Below, piece after piece: positions 4,088 to 23,378 of a stretch of 40,010 nucleotides of DNA. Below the pieces are notes generated by a model. That model was not told where the DNA came from and did not search any database. It was given only the letters and a program-made list of their open reading frames with translations. The translations under genes and the position numbers were made by a program. The stretch's first letter is position 1; each line of letters starts with the position of its first letter. Source of the stretch: a bacterium (GTDB lineage Bacteria; Fibrobacterota; Chitinivibrionia; Chitinivibrionales; Chitinivibrionaceae); contig JAIFMU010000084.1 of the NCBI GenBank assembly GCA_020048285.1, positions 1 through 40,010 on the forward strand, read 5' to 3'.

Positions 4088-4405
4088 CTATTTAACCAAC
4101 CCTTTCTTAAGTAGACGGTTTTTTACACGATCATTTGCACGCTTTTCAATCTCCGCACGAACCTGGGTGGCCTCTTGAGCGGTGGCATCTCGTTCAACGA
4201 TCGTCTTGCCCATAATCTTAGCGCCTAAAATCACCTGCTTGCCGCTGCAGTTAGTCGCTGGCTTAAGGGCCGCGACTAGGTCTTTGGCCTCTTTGTCAAA
4301 AGGGTAAGATTTGCCATCACCGATCTTAACGCATACCATGGCAGATGCTACGTTTACAGTCAGGGCCACTACACCAGCTACAACTACATTTTTCCAATTT
4401 TTCAT
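4088..4405 (-). CDS. Secreted protein with a canonical signal peptide
   Basis: This 105-residue protein has a textbook Sec signal peptide: MKNWK, then a hydrophobic core VVVAGVVALTVNV and a signal peptidase I site ASA at about residue 22. The mature protein is about 83 residues. It has two Cys that could form a disulfide (MVCVKIGDG and ATNCSG), then a Lys/Arg/Glu-rich helical C-terminus. A GGAGAT ribosome site precedes the ATG. Its own terminator follows. It is probably periplasmic or released. The function is unknown. Confidence 0.8.
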   Translation of the reverse strand: MKNWKNVVVAGVVALTVNVASAMVCVKIGDGKSYPFDKEAKDLVAALKPATNCSGKQVILGAKIMGKTIVERDATAQEATQVRAEIEKRANDRVKNRLLKKGLVK

Positions 4406-4507: not shown

Positions 4508-4729
4508 TTACTCGGCTTCTACAAATTCACAATCCTCATCATCCTCTTCTTCACACGATACATAACTGCCACCGTCAAGGGGTACATCATCACCGTAGCA
4601 TGGTACGGAGTACCCACCGCATCCGAATTTTTCACGACAATCTGCATCCGTTGTACAACTAGCGGATGGGGTGGTATCTCCGGCATTGCAATTCAAGCTT
4701 ACTAAGATCAACAATATTAAGATTTTCAT
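4508..4729 (-). CDS. Small secreted cysteine-rich acidic protein
   Basis: This is a 73-residue protein. The longer frame starts at 4750, but an AGGAG site is placed correctly for the ATG at 4729. That start gives a clean signal peptide MKILILLILVSLNCNA. The mature part is small and rich in Cys (about seven in total) with a very acidic C-terminus (EEEDDEDCEFVEAE). Disulfide-stabilised folding outside the cytoplasm is likely. It is the first gene of the leftward exported cluster. I do not recognise the family. Confidence 0.75.
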   Translation of the reverse strand: MKILILLILVSLNCNAGDTTPSASCTTDADCREKFGCGGYSVPCYGDDVPLDGGSYVSCEEEDDEDCEFVEAE

Positions 4730-4996
4730 TTTTAAACTCCTGTTTTTCATTCAATCTACATAAAAACATGATGCATCATCGATGCCAAAACGCAATCAAC
4801 GAAATTCAATCACTTAAGGGGGTGGTAAAACGGCCCCACCGTAGTATTTTGACACCGATCAAGGGCCAAAACGCCACTAATCTAATGCAACATGTTGATT
4901 TAATTGATTTTTTTCGCATCTTTATAAGAAAAAAAACTTGATTTTTCGGGCCGTCTGAATAATAGTCAGGTGTCAGAAAAATCGACAATTTTTCTA

Positions 4997-6888: not shown

Positions 6889-7551
6889 ATGAAACGAATC
6901 GCGATTATCGTAGGACATTCACCCAACGCTAAGGGTGCAGTCAATTTTATGAACGTGTCTGAGTATGATTTCAACAAGGCAGTAGCAGAGAAAATACTGC
7001 TGGATCTAGTAGAGTACGATTGTAATGCTAAAATGTTTTTACGCTTGCACGGAATTAGCAACTTGGGTGCCGAAGTTAAGGTTTTCGACCCCGCTTATTC
7101 AGTAGAACTTCACTTCAATTCCAGCGAATATGCTGTGACGGGTGCCCAGACCGAGGTTCTATGTATGCCCTATGTTAATGGTATTGCAGCGGCACAGAAG
7201 TTGGCAGCCGCATTTGAGAAAGAATATAAGTATGGGCTTCGGAATGGTAAGGACATGGGTGCCAAAATCCTTAATCCAGAATCTAGAGGGTGGGGTAATT
7301 TGCATAGTACAGGCAAGAAAGATGCTCTTTTAATCGAGCCAGTTTTCGGCAATACGGCAACAAGTCAGGCTAAAGATTTCTTCAAAAACCCGGACAGATA
7401 TTCTAAATTTTTGTCTGATTATATCGTGAAGGAATTAGGCCTAGTTGCGAAGGATGTCCCACCCGTGCTTCGGAAAGTGGCAAGCACAGATGAGATTCAC
7501 TTAGCTATTAACAACTTAGTAGCGGCACTAGAGAACTACCGCAACGGCTAG
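6889..7551 (+). CDS. N-acetylmuramoyl-L-alanine amidase (endolysin)
   Basis: This 220-residue protein cleaves the bond between MurNAc and the stem peptide of peptidoglycan. It fits the zinc-dependent Amidase_3 fold. The first zinc ligand is His10 in VGHSPN, the second probably Glu25, and the third His75 in ELHFN. The catalytic Glu150 lies in LLIEPVFGN. There is no signal peptide, so export would need a holin. A C-terminal tail after about residue 190 might bind the wall. The start has AGGAGAT upstream. It sits in the early operon, far from the holin candidate at 18.6-18.9 kb, which is unusual for a lysis gene. Its stop codon overlaps that of the convergent primase gene. Confidence 0.85.
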   Translation: MKRIAIIVGHSPNAKGAVNFMNVSEYDFNKAVAEKILLDLVEYDCNAKMFLRLHGISNLGAEVKVFDPAYSVELHFNSSEYAVTGAQTEVLCMPYVNGIAAAQKLAAAFEKEYKYGLRNGKDMGAKILNPESRGWGNLHSTGKKDALLIEPVFGNTATSQAKDFFKNPDRYSKFLSDYIVKELGLVAKDVPPVLRKVASTDEIHLAINNLVAALENYRNG

Positions 7552-15638: not shown

Positions 15639-15944
15639 ATGTTATACAAACCAAACAATATCCACCGTATAGTTGATAAACAAGACATGTTTAACAAACT
15701 GCTTCAATCAACTGATTTTACCAAAGCACGCAATTCACTGGAAGCGGTTAAGATTATGTTTACTGCAATCTTTCCAACCATTGAAAGGGTGGTTGAAGAT
15801 AACGAATCTCTCTTGATCGAACAGGCAAAAGTGTTGCAGAATTATGCCGAGTTAGACGAAAAATATAAGAAATTGGAAGTTGAATATGATGATCTTAGAA
15901 AACAAATTCAAAAACCGAGTGATGAAGAAGTTAAAGGAACTTGA
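15639..15944 (+). CDS. Small protein with a C-terminal coiled coil
   Basis: This 101-residue protein is chosen to start at the ATG at 15639, which has AGGAGG seven bases upstream; the longer frame overlaps the HNH gene. Residues about 50-95 are a strongly predicted coiled coil (YAELDEKYKKLEVEYDDLRK). Its 3' end overlaps the start of the nuclease gene by about 59 bp, so the two are coupled. The function is unknown. Confidence 0.7.
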   Translation: MLYKPNNIHRIVDKQDMFNKLLQSTDFTKARNSLEAVKIMFTAIFPTIERVVEDNESLLIEQAKVLQNYAELDEKYKKLEVEYDDLRKQIQKPSDEEVKGT

Positions 15945-16188
15945 CGGCGGTTTCTTTTTCAGCAAAGAGGCGATGTCCTTGCGCGGATACCCCGACATTC
16001 TGGGGTGCTATAAAGGGAAATTTGTCGCTTTGGAAGTGAAAAGATCAAAAGCGGATAGCACCCGAGCAACTGGAAGGACTCCATTGCAGAAATATATACT
16101 AGGAAAAATCAATGATGCCGGTGGATATGCGACATTTATTTACCCAGAAAACGAGAACGAAGTTTTCACAACAATCAAGGAAATGTAA
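15886..16188 (+). CDS. VRR-NUC domain nuclease
   Basis: This 100-residue minimal VRR-NUC protein is a PD-(D/E)xK nuclease resembling Holliday-junction or flap endonucleases. The catalytic residues are Asp37 in GYPDILG, then Glu50 and Lys52 in FVALEVKRS. A conserved TPLQKYILGKINDAGGYA helix follows. I use the ATG at 15886 behind GGAAG rather than the TTG at 15880. It usually occurs beside SNF2 helicases in phages and would process replication or recombination intermediates. Here it is the last replication gene of the rightward operon. Confidence 0.9.
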   Translation: MMILENKFKNRVMKKLKELDGGFFFSKEAMSLRGYPDILGCYKGKFVALEVKRSKADSTRATGRTPLQKYILGKINDAGGYATFIYPENENEVFTTIKEM

Positions 16189-16195
16189 ATATGGA

Positions 16196-16732
16196 GTGGA
16201 TAATACCTTTTTGTATTATAATTGTGTTTATTTTAGCTGTTTTGCGGCCTTAGTTCTTTTCTCTTTCCAAATATTTGCGCTAGATTGCACCCAAGCATTG
16301 ACCAATCTGATGTCTGCTAGTGACCAAAAATTAAACGTCCGATACTACACCCGAACCGAGCAATTAGCGCATTTGATTCTAGTTTCTGATGAAGGTCTGC
16401 TTTTGAGTAATGGTGAGAAACTATCCACGGGTGCCAGAGGTCTTATTTATGTTGTTACATTAGAAGGTGAACTAATTGCTAGTGTAAATCTAACTAAAAT
16501 AATCCATCACACCACCCTGGCAATGGGTCAACCTATCCTTGCCGCTGGGTGGTTCGCTGTCCAGCATGGACGAATCCAGACACTGAGTAATGAATCTGGG
16601 CACTACAAACCAACTAAAAACCATTTGCAATTTATGATCAATTATCTTGTATCGAAAGGCGTTTCATTAAGGGGTGCGTTTATTGGAGATTTCAGCAGCG
16701 CATCGGGTGGAACTTTCTTTACCTTCCATTAA
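16196..16732 (+). CDS. Exported protein with IQM-like HHxx...SGHYxPT domain
   Basis: This is a protein of about 178 residues if the GTG at 16196 is the start; the start is uncertain and the nearest ribosome site (AAGGAA near 16178) is loosely spaced. Residues about 11-28 are a hydrophobic signal sequence with a likely cleavage site after IFA. The mature domain contains GLIYVVTLEGELIAS, then IIHHTTLAMGQPILAAGWFA (102-121), HGRIQTLSNESGHYKPT (124-140) and HLQFMINYLVSKGVSLRG. That order matches the pattern I know from plant IQM calmodulin-binding proteins and some bacterial secreted proteins. The catalytic role, if any, is unknown. It is the last rightward gene and its stop overlaps that of the convergent tail gene. 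Confidence 0.7.
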   Translation: MDNTFLYYNCVYFSCFAALVLFSFQIFALDCTQALTNLMSASDQKLNVRYYTRTEQLAHLILVSDEGLLLSNGEKLSTGARGLIYVVTLEGELIASVNLTKIIHHTTLAMGQPILAAGWFAVQHGRIQTLSNESGHYKPTKNHLQFMINYLVSKGVSLRGAFIGDFSSASGGTFFTFH

Positions 16733-18111
16733 AAATATTCAAGCCACTGTGCAACACTGCTGACGTTAATGCTTCCTGCTGACGATGTGGCATAGAATAA
16801 GAAAATATCTGAATTATCCGAAGCAATGTTTTGTGAAATTAATCTATTTGGATTGCTGTATGTCGAACAACCTTGGCAAGGTGCAGTTGTTCGTGTATTT
16901 GATCCCACCCAATAGGATTCGATATTGGTGCTTGTTGCGCATGTTATGGCTGAAATATCTTCACTGTACTCAACGGATGAACTGGCTCCTGCACTAACCC
17001 AGGTCGCTGTGATAGCTGAAGGAGTTCGGCATTTTACAACATCAACCAGAACAGCACCAGTTGCAAGAGGAGTAAATCCTTCTAAAAACAATGATTTTCT
17101 GTTTTCCTTCCCATCGAAAGCTGCCTTCAATCTAACAGCGAATACAAGTTCGCGAGCTGTAATAGCATCAGTTGTTGCACCGTTATTAGCAGTAAACTCA
17201 ACCACGGGTGGTGTATAGCTTCCCTCAGATACCACCGCTGAACATATTTCTTTTAGCGTTGTAGATGATGCCGTGATTCCGGTGTTCAGATTCTCATATC
17301 GCACAGGAAGCGTCGCTTGAGACATATACACGGTGGTAAATGCGTTTGCGTTTAGAAATTCATGAACATAATACACTTCACCATCTAAATCTAAACCCAC
17401 CCGGACTCGACCAACTCCTAGCCATTGAAAATCGATTACAAAAATCTGAGCTTTAGAAAAATCAATCGTTTTCTTAAATGCACCCGTACCGTCTAGTTTA
17501 TCAATATTCCAAGATGTCTGAGCCACAGCATTATCAACAACGGCACCCGAGGTATAGGTTCGTCGAACTACCGAAACTCCTGTTGATGAAACCTGGAAGA
17601 AAATACCATTCTTATCATCAAACAGCCCAACACGCCGAACATTGTTCGCCTTCGGCACCCCTATCACTCCAGTAACCAACGCTAACTGTGACTTGCCTGG
17701 AATATATGGAACATAGATAGCAGACTGTCGCACAGCTCGCTCGCCATTAGCTGTGCCAACCTGGAGACTGACAGCAGATTCATTAGGCAAGTGGGTGAGA
17801 GTAGCTCCCACCCCTGAGAGTAAGCTGATCATTGAATCAGTGTTGTAATAAACATTGGAAGAAAAGAATAAAGGAAATTGTTCAGAAACCCTTAAACGAC
17901 CAAACGCATCTCTGTATTCACCAGGAATAGCGACATCTAACCCACGCTTTAACCCTAACTGGGTGCCAGTTATTCCTAATTTGCTTTGCTGCTCGCTTAG
18001 ATCATTTGCTTCAATTGCGAAAACTTTCTCAAGAAGTGACACAATACACAGAACAACGAACATGCTTAAAATTAACTGTCTGCGTGTGAAGTTATAATCT
18101 ATTCTTTTCAT
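16729..18111 (-). CDS. Tail-associated protein with a signal-peptide-like N-terminus
   Basis: This 460-residue protein starts with a basic region, FTRRQ, then the hydrophobic core LILSMFVVLCIVSLL and a possible cleavage at VFA|IE (about 33). The TRRQLIL sequence even resembles a Tat motif. The conserved DAFGRLRVSE (about 68-77) is typical of a large family of phage virion proteins. The rest is beta-rich, with paired cysteines near the C-terminus (PCQGCSTY). It is the most distal gene of the late operon and its ATG overlaps the stop of a 53-residue gene. A receptor-binding or tail-tip role is the likely inference. Confidence 0.7.
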   Translation of the reverse strand: MKRIDYNFTRRQLILSMFVVLCIVSLLEKVFAIEANDLSEQQSKLGITGTQLGLKRGLDVAIPGEYRDAFGRLRVSEQFPLFFSSNVYYNTDSMISLLSGVGATLTHLPNESAVSLQVGTANGERAVRQSAIYVPYIPGKSQLALVTGVIGVPKANNVRRVGLFDDKNGIFFQVSSTGVSVVRRTYTSGAVVDNAVAQTSWNIDKLDGTGAFKKTIDFSKAQIFVIDFQWLGVGRVRVGLDLDGEVYYVHEFLNANAFTTVYMSQATLPVRYENLNTGITASSTTLKEICSAVVSEGSYTPPVVEFTANNGATTDAITARELVFAVRLKAAFDGKENRKSLFLEGFTPLATGAVLVDVVKCRTPSAITATWVSAGASSSVEYSEDISAITCATSTNIESYWVGSNTRTTAPCQGCSTYSNPNRLISQNIASDNSDIFLFYATSSAGSINVSSVAQWLEYF

Positions 18112-18945: not shown

Positions 18946-20667
18946 CTATATTGACATCAATGCTTCTAATGCTAATATTTTTGCATTTGCTTCATCTAGT
19001 TTAACGGAAAGTTCTTGGATTGCTTTGACTAAAGTGGGAATTAATTCTGTAGACATTACAGAGTATTGTGTTTCTCCTGTGCCGCATACTGCTTCGCTAA
19101 CTATTGGTAGTAATTCCTGTGCAATAAATCCCATCCGTTTACTTTGTTCAGAATCATCATTAATATAATCAAATCTTACTGGATTAATTGCTAAAATTTC
19201 GTTCAATCCATATTGAAGTGGTTGAATATTCTTTTTAGCTCTTATGTCAGAAATTGCTGCCCAAGCAGTAGCAGTATTATTTAATTGTACTCCACCATAT
19301 GCTCCGGCAATTACTTGAATAATTGCAGAAGTACCACCTTGAGCTACTAGATAATTAATTCCATTTCTAGTCCATCTAATATTTGTTCCTGTTGTATCAA
19401 CTTGAACTGAACCAGTATTTCCTGTTACTTGGAATAATTCAGCAGCAGCTCCTCCAATCCCAACACTTCCGTTTGAACCAATTCGCATACGCTCAGTATT
19501 GTCTACCCTAAATTCTATGGTAGAGTTTGCCGATACATTCCCCCCGTCGGCACTGATTAGCAAAGATGTATCATTTATACCATTTAATATGTGATATAAT
19601 CCAGAAACTCCGGTATCGCTTAATCTTAACACAGGACTGCTGCCAATTACATCTAGCTGTGCGGATGGAGTGCCGCCAATACCGACATTTCCACCAGAGG
19701 TAATGCGCATCTTTTCTGCACCCAAGGTTCCAAATACTATATTGTTGTTCATGTCAGCAACGGTTGAGTATCCTGAAATATCTATATACGCTTTTTGTCC
19801 AACAGTAGATCCACCACCTGCGCTTAATCGTAAAAATCCATCATCTGCGGCATCATTTGATGGAGCGCCACTTAACTCTCCTGAAAGTCTAGTTGCTCCA
19901 ACCGCTGGACGAGTAGATGAACCACTTTGACCTTCAAGTAAAAGAATTGCTCCACTTTCATTTATCGTTAGTGCTGGAGAACCTAAAGTTTGTAATTTTA
20001 ATTTTCCATAAAAGTCATTGCCTATGGTTGTTACAGCTGAGTCAAAGTTCACACTGAAATTTGAATTCGATCCATTTGTTACATATAAAGCTGTGTCAGT
20101 ATTGTTTCCTCTGACTTCTAGTTTTCCATTTGTATTATTCCCTGATCCACCGACCCGAAGATTTCCAGTGGATGTTATACGCATACGTTCATCAAGCGTG
20201 CCAGCAGAATCACATGTAGTGAAAGCTAAGTATCCCGCATAATTTGCATCTGTTGAATTTTCTCTTTTCCCATGAATCGTGGCAGTAGGATAGTTTGCAA
20301 TAGTGCCATTAGCAGTGAATCCAAGCGATCCCCCTTTATTTATGCCGATTGCATCAGTAGATCCAACTACAAGCGCGCCTGGTGTATTTAAAACGGCGAC
20401 ACTTTCAGCGTTGAAAGTAGCGATAACGCCTGCTGTATTGGAACCATTCGCACCAACAACGAGCTTTTGATTTGGACTCGTTTCCCCTATTCCCACTTTT
20501 CCATCGGCTGCAACGTGAATAGAAGCATCCCACGCTGCACTTGTTCCATTTGATCTAAGAAGCGTGCCTAATGCACCCAGAGAAGCAGGCAAATGGGGTG
20601 CGGCTGCAACAGTATGTGCCTCAATAGTCGGTATTTTCTGAATCTGTTCAAATGAATTTATTGTCAT
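18946..20667 (-). CDS. Tail fibre with C-terminal S74 intramolecular chaperone (second fibre)
   Basis: This 573-residue fibre is made of repeated 'MRITSxGNVGIGGTPSAQLDV' type segments that fold as a triple beta-helix. The C-terminal chaperone begins at about residue 473 with SDIRAKKNI, where Ser and Lys form the self-cleaving dyad of peptidase S74. It ends in a coiled coil (LVKAIQELSVKLDEANAKIL). The chaperone would trimerise the fibre and then cut itself off. The ATG overlaps the stop of the upstream fibre gene. From 18.62 to 19.71 kb there is no GGGTG motif, the longest gap of the late operon apart from 26.83-28.32 kb, which fits recent fibre exchange. Confidence 0.85.
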   Translation of the reverse strand: MTINSFEQIQKIPTIEAHTVAAAPHLPASLGALGTLLRSNGTSAAWDASIHVAADGKVGIGETSPNQKLVVGANGSNTAGVIATFNAESVAVLNTPGALVVGSTDAIGINKGGSLGFTANGTIANYPTATIHGKRENSTDANYAGYLAFTTCDSAGTLDERMRITSTGNLRVGGSGNNTNGKLEVRGNNTDTALYVTNGSNSNFSVNFDSAVTTIGNDFYGKLKLQTLGSPALTINESGAILLLEGQSGSSTRPAVGATRLSGELSGAPSNDAADDGFLRLSAGGGSTVGQKAYIDISGYSTVADMNNNIVFGTLGAEKMRITSGGNVGIGGTPSAQLDVIGSSPVLRLSDTGVSGLYHILNGINDTSLLISADGGNVSANSTIEFRVDNTERMRIGSNGSVGIGGAAAELFQVTGNTGSVQVDTTGTNIRWTRNGINYLVAQGGTSAIIQVIAGAYGGVQLNNTATAWAAISDIRAKKNIQPLQYGLNEILAINPVRFDYINDDSEQSKRMGFIAQELLPIVSEAVCGTGETQYSVMSTELIPTLVKAIQELSVKLDEANAKILALEALMSI

Positions 20668-23378
20668 GGAACGCCCCCCTTGTTTTCTAAAGTTAAAATT
20701 CTTGCTTCTAGTGCGCTGTTCTTAGCTGATAACTCTTGCACTGCTTTTACTAAAGCAGCTGTTATTGATCGATCATATAGTCCATAATACCCATCATTCC
20801 CCATCGGGGCGGCTGAAGGAATTATTGGAGCAACTTGATCTGCAAAAAAACCTATTTCAACAGCTGCGTTTTCTCCACGTCTATCAATATCTGATAACCA
20901 TTTATAGGCCTTTGGAAATATTTTAAGGATTTCTGCAAGTCCAGGGATTTCAGCATCTGGAACTTCTTGCTTTAACCTAGAGTCAGAAGCAGCAGATAGC
21001 ACCCCATTGGCATCTGCATTTACTGCGCGTGAACCAGAACCAGCTAGATTAGCAATGGTCACTACTCCATCGGAGCTGATTCGCATTCTTTCCGCCATTG
21101 TTCCACCGGTGGCGTTTGTTGAAAAAGATAAATATCCAGCAGCATCTGACAAAGTAGAATTTTCCTTGCGTCCTGATATTTGTCCAAATGAAGTTGTTCC
21201 CAGCGCAGTTGCCGTAATAGAACCACCTAAACTAATCGCTCCACCTACCCCAGCTGCTTGGGCAATATCAGTCCAAGATCGAATGGCAAAAGTTCCAGCT
21301 CCATTGGCTATCGCTGGGTTTGTATTCACTCTAGCGTCAATGACTGATCCATATACTGCTGAAGTTCCACCCATCCCCAAAAATCCACTGCCATTTATTT
21401 GTCCTCGGAACGTGTTACTTGTGTAAAATTGAATAGCAGCAGCGTTAACAGTTTTGAACGCCAATGCTCCACCTCCTGAATAAATCAATTGCGCATTATT
21501 GGAGCTGCCACCGATAATGCCTATTTGGAATTGTCCACCAGTGTTCGCATTTTTCATGTAGATGTGAACAGCACGGTCGCCAGTCGCTTCTTCTCCCATT
21601 CGCAATTCAGTCGTTCCAGCTGCCGCAGTCGAGCTGATCCGTTGAACAGTTGTCCCAGCGCCAGCAACAGATAAAGCTGTACTAGCTACGGGTGCGGTTC
21701 CCACCCCAACAAGTCCACTGCCATCAATTTGAACTGCATTTGACCATGAAGATGCACTTCCATCACTTTTTAAAATCGAGTTAGCTGAACCAATTCCAAG
21801 TCTGTCAGGCGCACCGGCCACGCCACCTACAAATAAATCTCCAGCGGTGGTAAGAGGGTTAGTAAAACCGACATCAGCTGCCGGAGTCTGCCAAGAAACA
21901 GCACCCGCAGCCATTTGTAGAACTTTTCCATCAGTTCCCTTAGCTAAACGTGTAGCTAATCCACCGACGCCACCGACAATCATATCTTCCGCAGTTGTCA
22001 TAGGATTTGTGAAGGATGCCGCTGGATCTGCCCAAACAACTGCACCCGAACCGTTAACAGTTAAAACTTGTCCATTGCTACCAACCGCTAAGCGGTTAGG
22101 AACTCCAGCAACGCCACCCTTGATAATATCTTCAGCGGTGGTCATTGGATTGAACAAACCTGCGCCTGATGCTGTCCAAGCAGGCACGCCTCCGGAGACA
22201 GTGAGTACATGACCTTCGGTTCCAATTGGCAAGCGTGCAGGGACTCCTGTCGGAATCCCATAGATCATGTCCCCTTCAGCAGTCATTGGATTAGATAAAC
22301 TAGTTCCATAAGCACCGTGGTACAAACCACGGATGGTTAACGCAGCGGGGATTGATGAGTTTAACGTGACTTCAGAGCTTAACCCACCCGATATGCTGGT
22401 AAATTCATAATCGTATGTAGCACCCTCATTAAACAAAACGCCATCGATGAAGAGCTGAAAGTTTGCTTTGTTGGACATAGATACGTCATAGCCAAGATCA
22501 ATGACTGTCTGAGCAGCGGTACTTACGCCAAAATATTCATCAGTAGTTGAATACACCAGCGGTGGTACTGACCAGGTAGCGGCTCCTGCACCGTTTGATG
22601 AAAGAACATAATTGCTAGGAATCCCACTTGAAGATACGTTTACACCCTCTAATTTAGATTGCTTTCCAATGAAGAGGTTATCAATTTTTAAATCAAAGAT
22701 TCCAGCTCTGGATAATGTTTGATGGATGATAAAGCGATAATTTACCCCAGTCGTAACAGCAAAGGATGATGAGTAATTTATGACTGTGGAGCTTTCACTT
22801 AGTGCAGTAGTTGAAGGAGTTACCAGCGTGGCATTATCAACGTCATAGAGAAACACAGCAAAATCACCGTTTGAACTATCAGCATCTGCCCATAAATAGT
22901 CGAATGAAATAACCAGGTTCTGGTTCAAACTAGCTGAATCTAGCGTGAATGTATAAGAGCATCCATGCCCCTGACCGCCCAATGCGCTATTAAACTTGGA
23001 GATGAGGAGCGAGCCATTACCTTCCAGTGGCGTAACTGCTGATCGATCACACGTTAGAAATGTACTTGTCCCACCAGTACCATCTACAGGTACAATTCCA
23101 GCGGCGTCAACGTAGGAGGTAAAGTTTTCACCTGTCAGTTCAAAAGCTCCAATTGGTATATAGTTCTTTCTGATGTTTGCACCCTGGAAGTTGTGTGCAA
23201 TAACCTCACCGCCGACTCGCAGCTTTTTTGTTGATATGGCTTCTAGCTCAAGAAAATTGGCAAATTGGATGATGTTTTCAAGAAACACAGCTCTGCCTGG
23301 TCCATAATAAACCACGCTGGCGTATGCTGTTATGGAGAGACAAGTTAAAATAAGAAATGCGGTTATTTTACGTTTCAT
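20664..23378 (-). CDS. Large tail fibre with Sec-like signal peptide and S74 chaperone
   Basis: This 904-residue protein begins MKRKITAFLILTCLSITAYA, a canonical signal peptide with an AYA cleavage site. The start is fixed by tight coupling to the upstream gene. Residues about 350-540 carry five repeats of the type 'NPMTTAxDxIxGGVxGxPxRL' with 'GxVLxVxGGxxxW'. A beta-helical shaft follows, then an S74 autoprotease-chaperone from about residue 798 (SDSRLK with the Ser/Lys dyad; GFFADQVAPIIP) and a C-terminal coiled coil. It would form the main trimeric fibre. A signal peptide on a fibre that must assemble onto a cytoplasmic virion is odd. The first 20 residues might instead be a hydrophobic tail anchor. 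Confidence 0.85.
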   Translation of the reverse strand: MKRKITAFLILTCLSITAYASVVYYGPGRAVFLENIIQFANFLELEAISTKKLRVGGEVIAHNFQGANIRKNYIPIGAFELTGENFTSYVDAAGIVPVDGTGGTSTFLTCDRSAVTPLEGNGSLLISKFNSALGGQGHGCSYTFTLDSASLNQNLVISFDYLWADADSSNGDFAVFLYDVDNATLVTPSTTALSESSTVINYSSSFAVTTGVNYRFIIHQTLSRAGIFDLKIDNLFIGKQSKLEGVNVSSSGIPSNYVLSSNGAGAATWSVPPLVYSTTDEYFGVSTAAQTVIDLGYDVSMSNKANFQLFIDGVLFNEGATYDYEFTSISGGLSSEVTLNSSIPAALTIRGLYHGAYGTSLSNPMTAEGDMIYGIPTGVPARLPIGTEGHVLTVSGGVPAWTASGAGLFNPMTTAEDIIKGGVAGVPNRLAVGSNGQVLTVNGSGAVVWADPAASFTNPMTTAEDMIVGGVGGLATRLAKGTDGKVLQMAAGAVSWQTPAADVGFTNPLTTAGDLFVGGVAGAPDRLGIGSANSILKSDGSASSWSNAVQIDGSGLVGVGTAPVASTALSVAGAGTTVQRISSTAAAGTTELRMGEEATGDRAVHIYMKNANTGGQFQIGIIGGSSNNAQLIYSGGGALAFKTVNAAAIQFYTSNTFRGQINGSGFLGMGGTSAVYGSVIDARVNTNPAIANGAGTFAIRSWTDIAQAAGVGGAISLGGSITATALGTTSFGQISGRKENSTLSDAAGYLSFSTNATGGTMAERMRISSDGVVTIANLAGSGSRAVNADANGVLSAASDSRLKQEVPDAEIPGLAEILKIFPKAYKWLSDIDRRGENAAVEIGFFADQVAPIIPSAAPMGNDGYYGLYDRSITAALVKAVQELSAKNSALEARILTLENKGGVP

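What the first reader, a model, noticed from the sequence alone, without database searches (positions are those of the whole stretch)
16196..16732. Exported phage protein with a plant IQM-like domain
The order HHTT, AAG, HGRI, SGHYKPT and GVSL, with spacing of about 12, 10, 8 and 18 residues, matches what I recall of plant IQM calmodulin-binding proteins and some bacterial secreted proteins. In a phage, with a signal peptide, it suggests a secreted effector acting outside the phage or host cytoplasm, perhaps on a competing organism or on a eukaryotic host of the bacterium.
Basis: inference. Interest (0 to 1): 0.62.

Follow-up and report, generated by a model that had tools for sequence, protein, structure and literature searches.

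The report
Phage-borne cousin of bacterial toxin domains
A phage carries a small, apparently exported protein made of one domain that bacteria elsewhere attach to their interbacterial weapons, and that also resembles the core of a plant calmodulin-binding family; no protein-family library searched has a model for this domain and its predicted fold matches no solved structure.

Summary
The motif series is real. ORF 16196-16732 (178 aa, GTG start) has a hydrophobic export-like N-terminus followed by one ~120-residue domain. No model in Pfam, NCBIfam or PHROGs matches it, and no PDB sequence does. Profile searches recovered about 80 bacterial relatives. In many, the domain is the C-terminal payload of a polymorphic toxin (LXG and WXG100/T7SS in Listeria, Nocardia and Streptosporangiales, PAAR/T6SS in Noviherbaspirillum, Rhs in Enterobacter and Janthinobacterium), often followed within about 30 nt by a small immunity-type gene. 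Others are stand-alone proteins with signal peptides, as in the phage. The phage copy keeps the family's invariant residues (second His of HH, AG, G, SGHY).

The resemblance to plant IQM covers the whole domain, not just SGHY: 103 bits for a recalled IQM segment against a bacterial profile, 72 for the phage protein, at most 11 for 4,000 shuffles. But the phage protein has no IQ motif and is not an IQM protein. AlphaFold models are confident (pLDDT 89 and 94.5), yet Foldseek finds no PDB relative, so the ADP-ribosyltransferase and lectin ideas get no support.

Best reading: an exported, stand-alone member of an undescribed toxin-domain superfamily, probably an effector released from infected cells. 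Activity and target are unknown; the translation start is uncertain.

The parts
16196..16732 (+). ORF of the finding, 178 aa plus stop, GTG start; last gene of the rightward replication-side gene run, tail-to-tail with the leftward structural genes
16196..16279 (+). hydrophobic export-like N-terminus (residues 1-28, plausible cleavage IFA|LD); no positive charge in the n-region
   Evidence: hydropathy; sequence
16328..16678 (+). conserved toxin/IQM-like domain (profile match to the bacterial relatives)
   Evidence: 72 bits, profile built without the window; 71.5 bits; AlphaFold pLDDT 89 over the mature protein
16505..16510 (+). His-His (residues 104-105); the second His is invariant in the relatives, followed by S/T
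16544..16549 (+). near-invariant Ala-Gly (residues 117-118)
   Evidence: A 99%, G 100%
16595..16606 (+). SGHY signature (residues 134-137); His invariant; the Gly is replaced by Thr/Ser in all 18 immunity-fused copies of relatives
16191..16253 (+). 20-codon overlapping ORF (MEWIIPFCIIIVFILAVLRP) with the best-placed Shine-Dalgarno in the region, in another frame; makes the true start of the finding's ORF uncertain
   Evidence: sequence
16112..16195 (+). possible longer in-frame N-terminus (ATG 16112), Lys/Arg-rich, overlapping the upstream endonuclease gene (15880-16188)

Best explanation
The ORF is a stand-alone, exported member of an undescribed toxin-domain superfamily. Other bacteria mount the same domain at the C-terminus of T7SS, T6SS and Rhs polymorphic toxins, and plants seem to carry it as the core of IQM proteins. 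I propose that the phage makes it during infection and sends it through the Sec pathway out of the infected cell's cytoplasm, so the producer is not poisoned even though no immunity gene is encoded. It is then released at lysis or by secretion and acts on other cells, either bacterial competitors or eukaryotic neighbours. The toxic act is probably enzymatic, with an active site built from the HH-S/T loop and the SGHY loop. Shown here: domain membership, conservation of the signature residues, the toxin and immunity context of the relatives, and a confident predicted fold without a solved relative. Inferred: export, toxicity of this copy, cytoplasmic target, enzymatic nature, and action on another cell.
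For: Relatives are C-terminal domains of LXG (PF04740), PAAR (PF05488), T7SS_signal (PF21725) and WXG100_2 (PF25547) proteins and of Rhs-type proteins. The downstream small ORFs fall into recurrent families: one type next to 9 domains, another next to about 25, starting from a few nt of overlap to about 30 nt after the domain ORF. Immunity-type proteins from Gram-negative hosts have no signal peptide (sequences), which points to a cytoplasmic target. Stand-alone relatives with signal-peptide-like N-termini and no immunity-type neighbour exist: L056, L059, L062, L063, L082 and Candidatus Megaera. The phage copy keeps second His, AG, G and SGHY. All 18 immunity-fused copies in relatives keep the other conserved residues but change SGHY to S[T/S]HY, which marks that motif as functionally decisive; the phage has the toxin-type motif. 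The N-terminus is hydrophobic.
Against: No trafficking domain and no immunity gene in the phage, so toxicity is only inferred from relatives. The n-region lacks positive charge and the best ribosome site belongs to another frame, so the N-terminus may be mis-assigned. The sequence is a long branch with at most 29% identity to any relative in the tree, so function may have diverged. No other viral copy was found in the sequence scans, so there is no comparative evidence within phages.
Confidence: 0.5

Rival explanations
1. Envelope role in the infected cell: the exported protein stays in the periplasm or is tethered by an uncleaved N-terminal helix, and helps lysis or blocks superinfecting phages.
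For: Small exported proteins of lytic phages often have such roles (general knowledge). The phage has other small proteins with signal-like N-termini (4088-4405, 4508-4750).
Against: The endolysin is elsewhere (6889-7551). Relatives' immunity-type proteins look cytoplasmic, so the domain's usual target is probably not in the envelope.
Confidence: 0.2
2. Non-toxic binding protein: the domain binds a ligand and acts as a decoy or regulator, like the immunity-fused domain copies in Nocardia or plant IQM.
For: Nocardia immunity genes are fused to copies that keep the conserved residues except the Gly of SGHY. Plant IQM proteins are described as calmodulin-binding regulators (PMC9853202, PMC6008652).
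Against: The phage copy has the toxin-type SGHY, not S[T/S]HY.
Confidence: 0.15
3. Cytoplasmic host-takeover protein: the hydrophobic N-terminus is not a working signal and the protein acts inside the infected cell.
For: Uncharged n-region and unclear start. The gene is the last of the replication-side run of genes.
Against: A 19-residue stretch of mean hydropathy 2.09 right before the domain is hard to explain in a soluble protein. Several relatives have clear signal peptides.
Confidence: 0.1
4. ADP-ribosyltransferase or glycan-binding effector.
For: Only the general idea of an effector with conserved His and Tyr.
Against: Two confident models have no significant match among PDB structures, which include ART, RIP and lectin folds; the best hits have E of at least 0.3 and TM-scores of about 0.3 or less.
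Confidence: 0.03

Closest known systems
C-terminal toxin domains of LXG/WXG100 (T7SS), PAAR (T6SS) and Rhs polymorphic toxins carrying the HHSS...AG...SGHY domain (no library model found)
   Same: Same domain over ~120 residues, same invariant residues, same order of the main predicted secondary-structure elements
   Different: Phage protein has no trafficking domain and no adjacent immunity gene; it has an export-like N-terminus; HHSS is HHTT
Plant IQM (IQ-motif-containing, calmodulin-binding) proteins
   Same: The domain aligns nearly end to end with a recalled IQM core (103 bits to the bacterial profile; 25% identity to the phage protein over 117 residues)
   Different: No IQ motif, no plant N-terminal region, export-like N-terminus; the IQM sequence used was recalled, not retrieved
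Stand-alone signal-peptide relatives in Bdellovibrionota, Elusimicrobia, Halochromatium and Candidatus Megaera
   Same: Single IQM-like domain at the C-terminus behind a signal peptide, no immunity-type neighbour found
   Different: Cellular (chromosomal contig or plasmid), longer N-terminal regions, below 30% identity to the phage protein

Membership tests
HHSS/SGHY toxin-domain superfamily (defined here) | Significant profile match over the whole domain | tested here: met
   72 bits against a profile built without the window protein; shuffles at most 11 bits
HHSS/SGHY toxin-domain superfamily (defined here) | Invariant His, AG, G, SGHY residues | tested here: met
Polymorphic toxin (full system) | N-terminal trafficking domain (LXG, WXG100, PAAR, Rhs) | tested here: not met
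   only a short hydrophobic N-terminus precedes the domain; no Pfam hit
Polymorphic toxin (full system) | Adjacent cognate immunity gene | tested here: not met
   immunity profiles immA/immB/immC find nothing in the window; only a stop-interrupted E 0.32 match in the genome bin
Plant IQM family | IQM core domain | tested here: inconclusive
   strong profile score, but the IQM sequence was recalled from memory
Plant IQM family | IQ calmodulin-binding motif | tested here: not met
   no [ILV]QxxxRGxxxR-type motif in the 178 residues (read)
ADP-ribosyltransferase | ART fold | tested here: not met
   no ART among the listed Foldseek PDB hits of two confident models
Sec-exported protein | Signal peptide with charged n-region, h-region and cleavage site | tested here: inconclusive
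   h-region and cleavage site plausible, n-region uncharged; no dedicated predictor available

The most novel reading that the evidence does not exclude
The HHSS/SGHY domain is a previously unrecognised toxin fold, with no relative in the PDB, shared by bacterial weapons of three delivery types, by an exported phage effector, and by the plant IQM proteins, so that a plant regulatory family described as plant-specific derives from, or shares ancestry with, an interbacterial toxin domain.
Probability: 0.5. Interest if true: 0.75.

Novelty: new variant of a known kind. Interest (0 to 1): 0.56.

Why it matters
Polymorphic toxins are catalogued by their C-terminal domains, and this one has no model in the family libraries searched here although it is widespread and paired with recurrent immunity-type genes. 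Its predicted fold has no solved relative. The IQM literature calls the family plant-specific (PMC9853202, PMC10887524) and compares its C-terminus with a ribosome-inactivating protein (PMC9853202, citing earlier work). A shared origin with a bacterial toxin domain would give IQM a testable biochemical activity. A phage carrying an exported, immunity-free version suggests such domains can travel as phage cargo.

Tried and rejected
Pfam, NCBIfam and PHROG scans of the protein, and Pfam and NCBIfam scans of its relatives, gave only noise. The phmmer search of the PDB gave nothing, and the profile search gave mainly repeat-type designed proteins, which I reject because each match is a short stretch of low score. 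Foldseek against PDB gave no significant match for either model; against BFVD there was one match, G8DGH9 (E 2e-4, TM 0.56), which could not be named with the tools. Viral-contig scans with several queries found only the window's own record or nothing, and phage-collection tblastn found no convincing relative. The tree cannot place the phage copy: long branch, joined to other long branches. A canonical programmed frameshift site between the 20-codon ORF and the main ORF was looked for by eye and not found. The held papers searched gave no description of this toxin domain. The organism of the genome bin could not be named with the tools; 60 relatives had no copy by the first profile, and only five diverged homologues were found among 168 genomes of the phylum.

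Full report
The observation. ORF 16196-16732 on the + strand reads, from a GTG, VDNTFLYYNCVYFSCFAALVLFSFQIFALDCTQ... to ...GGTFFTFH, 178 residues. The window is the whole contig C213 of a 3.4 Mb genome bin and matches an IMG/VR record of the same length. Its DNA polymerase and portal/head-tail connector resemble those of T7-like podoviruses and HTVC010P-type pelagiphages. The gene is the last of the rightward run of replication-side genes (helicase, polymerase, HNH and other endonucleases) and faces the leftward virion genes tail to tail. Its G+C (40.4%) equals that of the window (40.5%).

What the domain is. No model in Pfam, NCBIfam or PHROGs matches it, and no PDB sequence does. A tblastn search of plasmids, however, gave 14 records, among them the C-terminus of a Listeria LXG protein, of a Nocardia protein next to WXG100 genes, and of Rhs-type proteins. 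An alignment of four of these, used on the GTDB genome collection, returned 75 loci across Actinomycetota, Pseudomonadota, Bacteroidota, Cyanobacteriota, Bdellovibrionota, Acidobacteriota and others. The N-terminal parts of several are known trafficking modules: LXG, PAAR, T7SS_signal, WXG100_2. In many loci the domain ends its protein and a small gene follows almost at once. Profiles of those small proteins find the same families repeated: one next to 9 domains, another next to about 25, most of which were not used to build the profile. None of the ten tested has a Pfam match. This is the usual toxin-immunity layout. The immunity-type proteins of Gram-negative members start without a signal peptide, so the toxin presumably acts in the cytoplasm (inference).

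Conserved residues. Across 93 non-immunity copies the second His of HH, the Gly of AG, a later Gly and the His of SGHY are invariant, and Y of SGHY and A of AG are at 99%. The phage protein keeps all of these; it differs in HHTT for HHSS and LAMG for FLAG. In Nocardia and related loci, 18 immunity genes are fused to another copy of the domain that keeps the other conserved residues but changes SGHY to S[T/S]HY, in all 18. I read this as an inactivated, ligand-binding copy, which makes SGHY the likely active-site motif; this is an inference.

Relation to plant IQM. A profile of bacterial domains built without the window protein scores a plant IQM segment, recalled from memory, at 103 bits and the phage protein at 72 bits; 4,000 shuffles reach at most 11. 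The alignment runs from the V-Y start of the domain to the helix after SGHYxP, so the similarity is not confined to SGHY. Because the IQM sequence was recalled rather than retrieved, this is a strong lead, not a closed test. The phage protein lacks the IQ motif and is not an IQM protein. The IQM literature describes the family as plant-specific and its C-terminus as similar to trichosanthin (PMC9853202, PMC8469326); the present models match no ribosome-inactivating protein among the listed hits.

Structure. AlphaFold2 gave confident models for the phage domain (pLDDT 89.1, pTM 0.85) and for a toxin relative from Paracidovorax (pLDDT 94.5, pTM 0.90). Foldseek against the PDB gave no significant match for either. 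Against viral models one unnamed protein matched (G8DGH9). The ADP-ribosyltransferase and glycan-binding proposals are therefore not supported.

Export and start. Residues 11-29 are strongly hydrophobic and end at a plausible cleavage site, but the n-region MDN has no positive charge. A better-spaced ribosome site serves ATG 16191, in another frame, which closes after 20 codons; an in-frame ATG at 16112 lies inside the upstream endonuclease gene. The start is therefore unresolved and the frame at the N-terminus should be checked against raw reads. Stand-alone relatives with clearer signal peptides and no immunity-type neighbour exist (L056, L059, L062, L063, L082; and Candidatus Megaera), which is the architecture the phage protein shares.

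Mechanism. The most likely account is an effector: exported from the producing cell, harmless there because its usual target is cytoplasmic, and released to act on another cell. Rivals are an envelope role in the infected cell, a non-toxic binding role, and a cytoplasmic role if the N-terminus does not export. The evidence does not identify the chemistry; two conserved histidines with Ser/Thr and Tyr suggest an enzyme.

Novelty. A toxin domain with no library model, found with three types of delivery system, with its own immunity-type families, no solved fold relative and a probable plant branch is of interest beyond this phage. The phage protein itself is a new variant of a known kind.

Noticed in passing
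L018, L019, L022-L024, L026-L032, L037, L038 (Nocardia) and other immB hits: Immunity-type proteins are fused to a second copy of the toxin domain in which the Gly of SGHY is changed (to Thr/Ser, 18 of 18) while the other signature residues are kept.
   Followed up: partly
window 16729-18111 (-) and 20664-23378 (-): A virion structural protein (phrog_1645) and an S74-type fibre-like protein begin with signal-peptide-like N-termini, unusual for phage virion proteins.
   Followed up: no
window 4088-4405 (-) and 4508-4750 (-): Two further small proteins with signal-peptide-like N-termini, one cysteine-rich.
   Followed up: no
L083:3743-4645 (Gammaproteobacteria MAG): Upstream of the domain the protein reads CIDPKHR...FWQWLE, which resembles the recalled plant IQM stretch AIDPRHR...FFYWLD; Nostoc-type and other relatives also carry FW-WL before the domain.
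   Followed up: partly
L092-L095 (genomes of the bin's phylum): Diverged homologues of about 185 aa (HP rather than HH, SGHYKPN or SGHFKPN), mostly near an RNA 2'-phosphotransferase-like ORF, with a small ORF downstream.
   Followed up: partly
L066, L068, L069: Proteins with two copies of the domain (cyanobacterium, Zoogloea and a Verrucomicrobiota MAG).
   Followed up: no
BFVD entry G8DGH9 (no window coordinates): Only viral model structurally similar to the domain (351 aa, TM 0.56); its virus could not be named with the tools.
   Followed up: no
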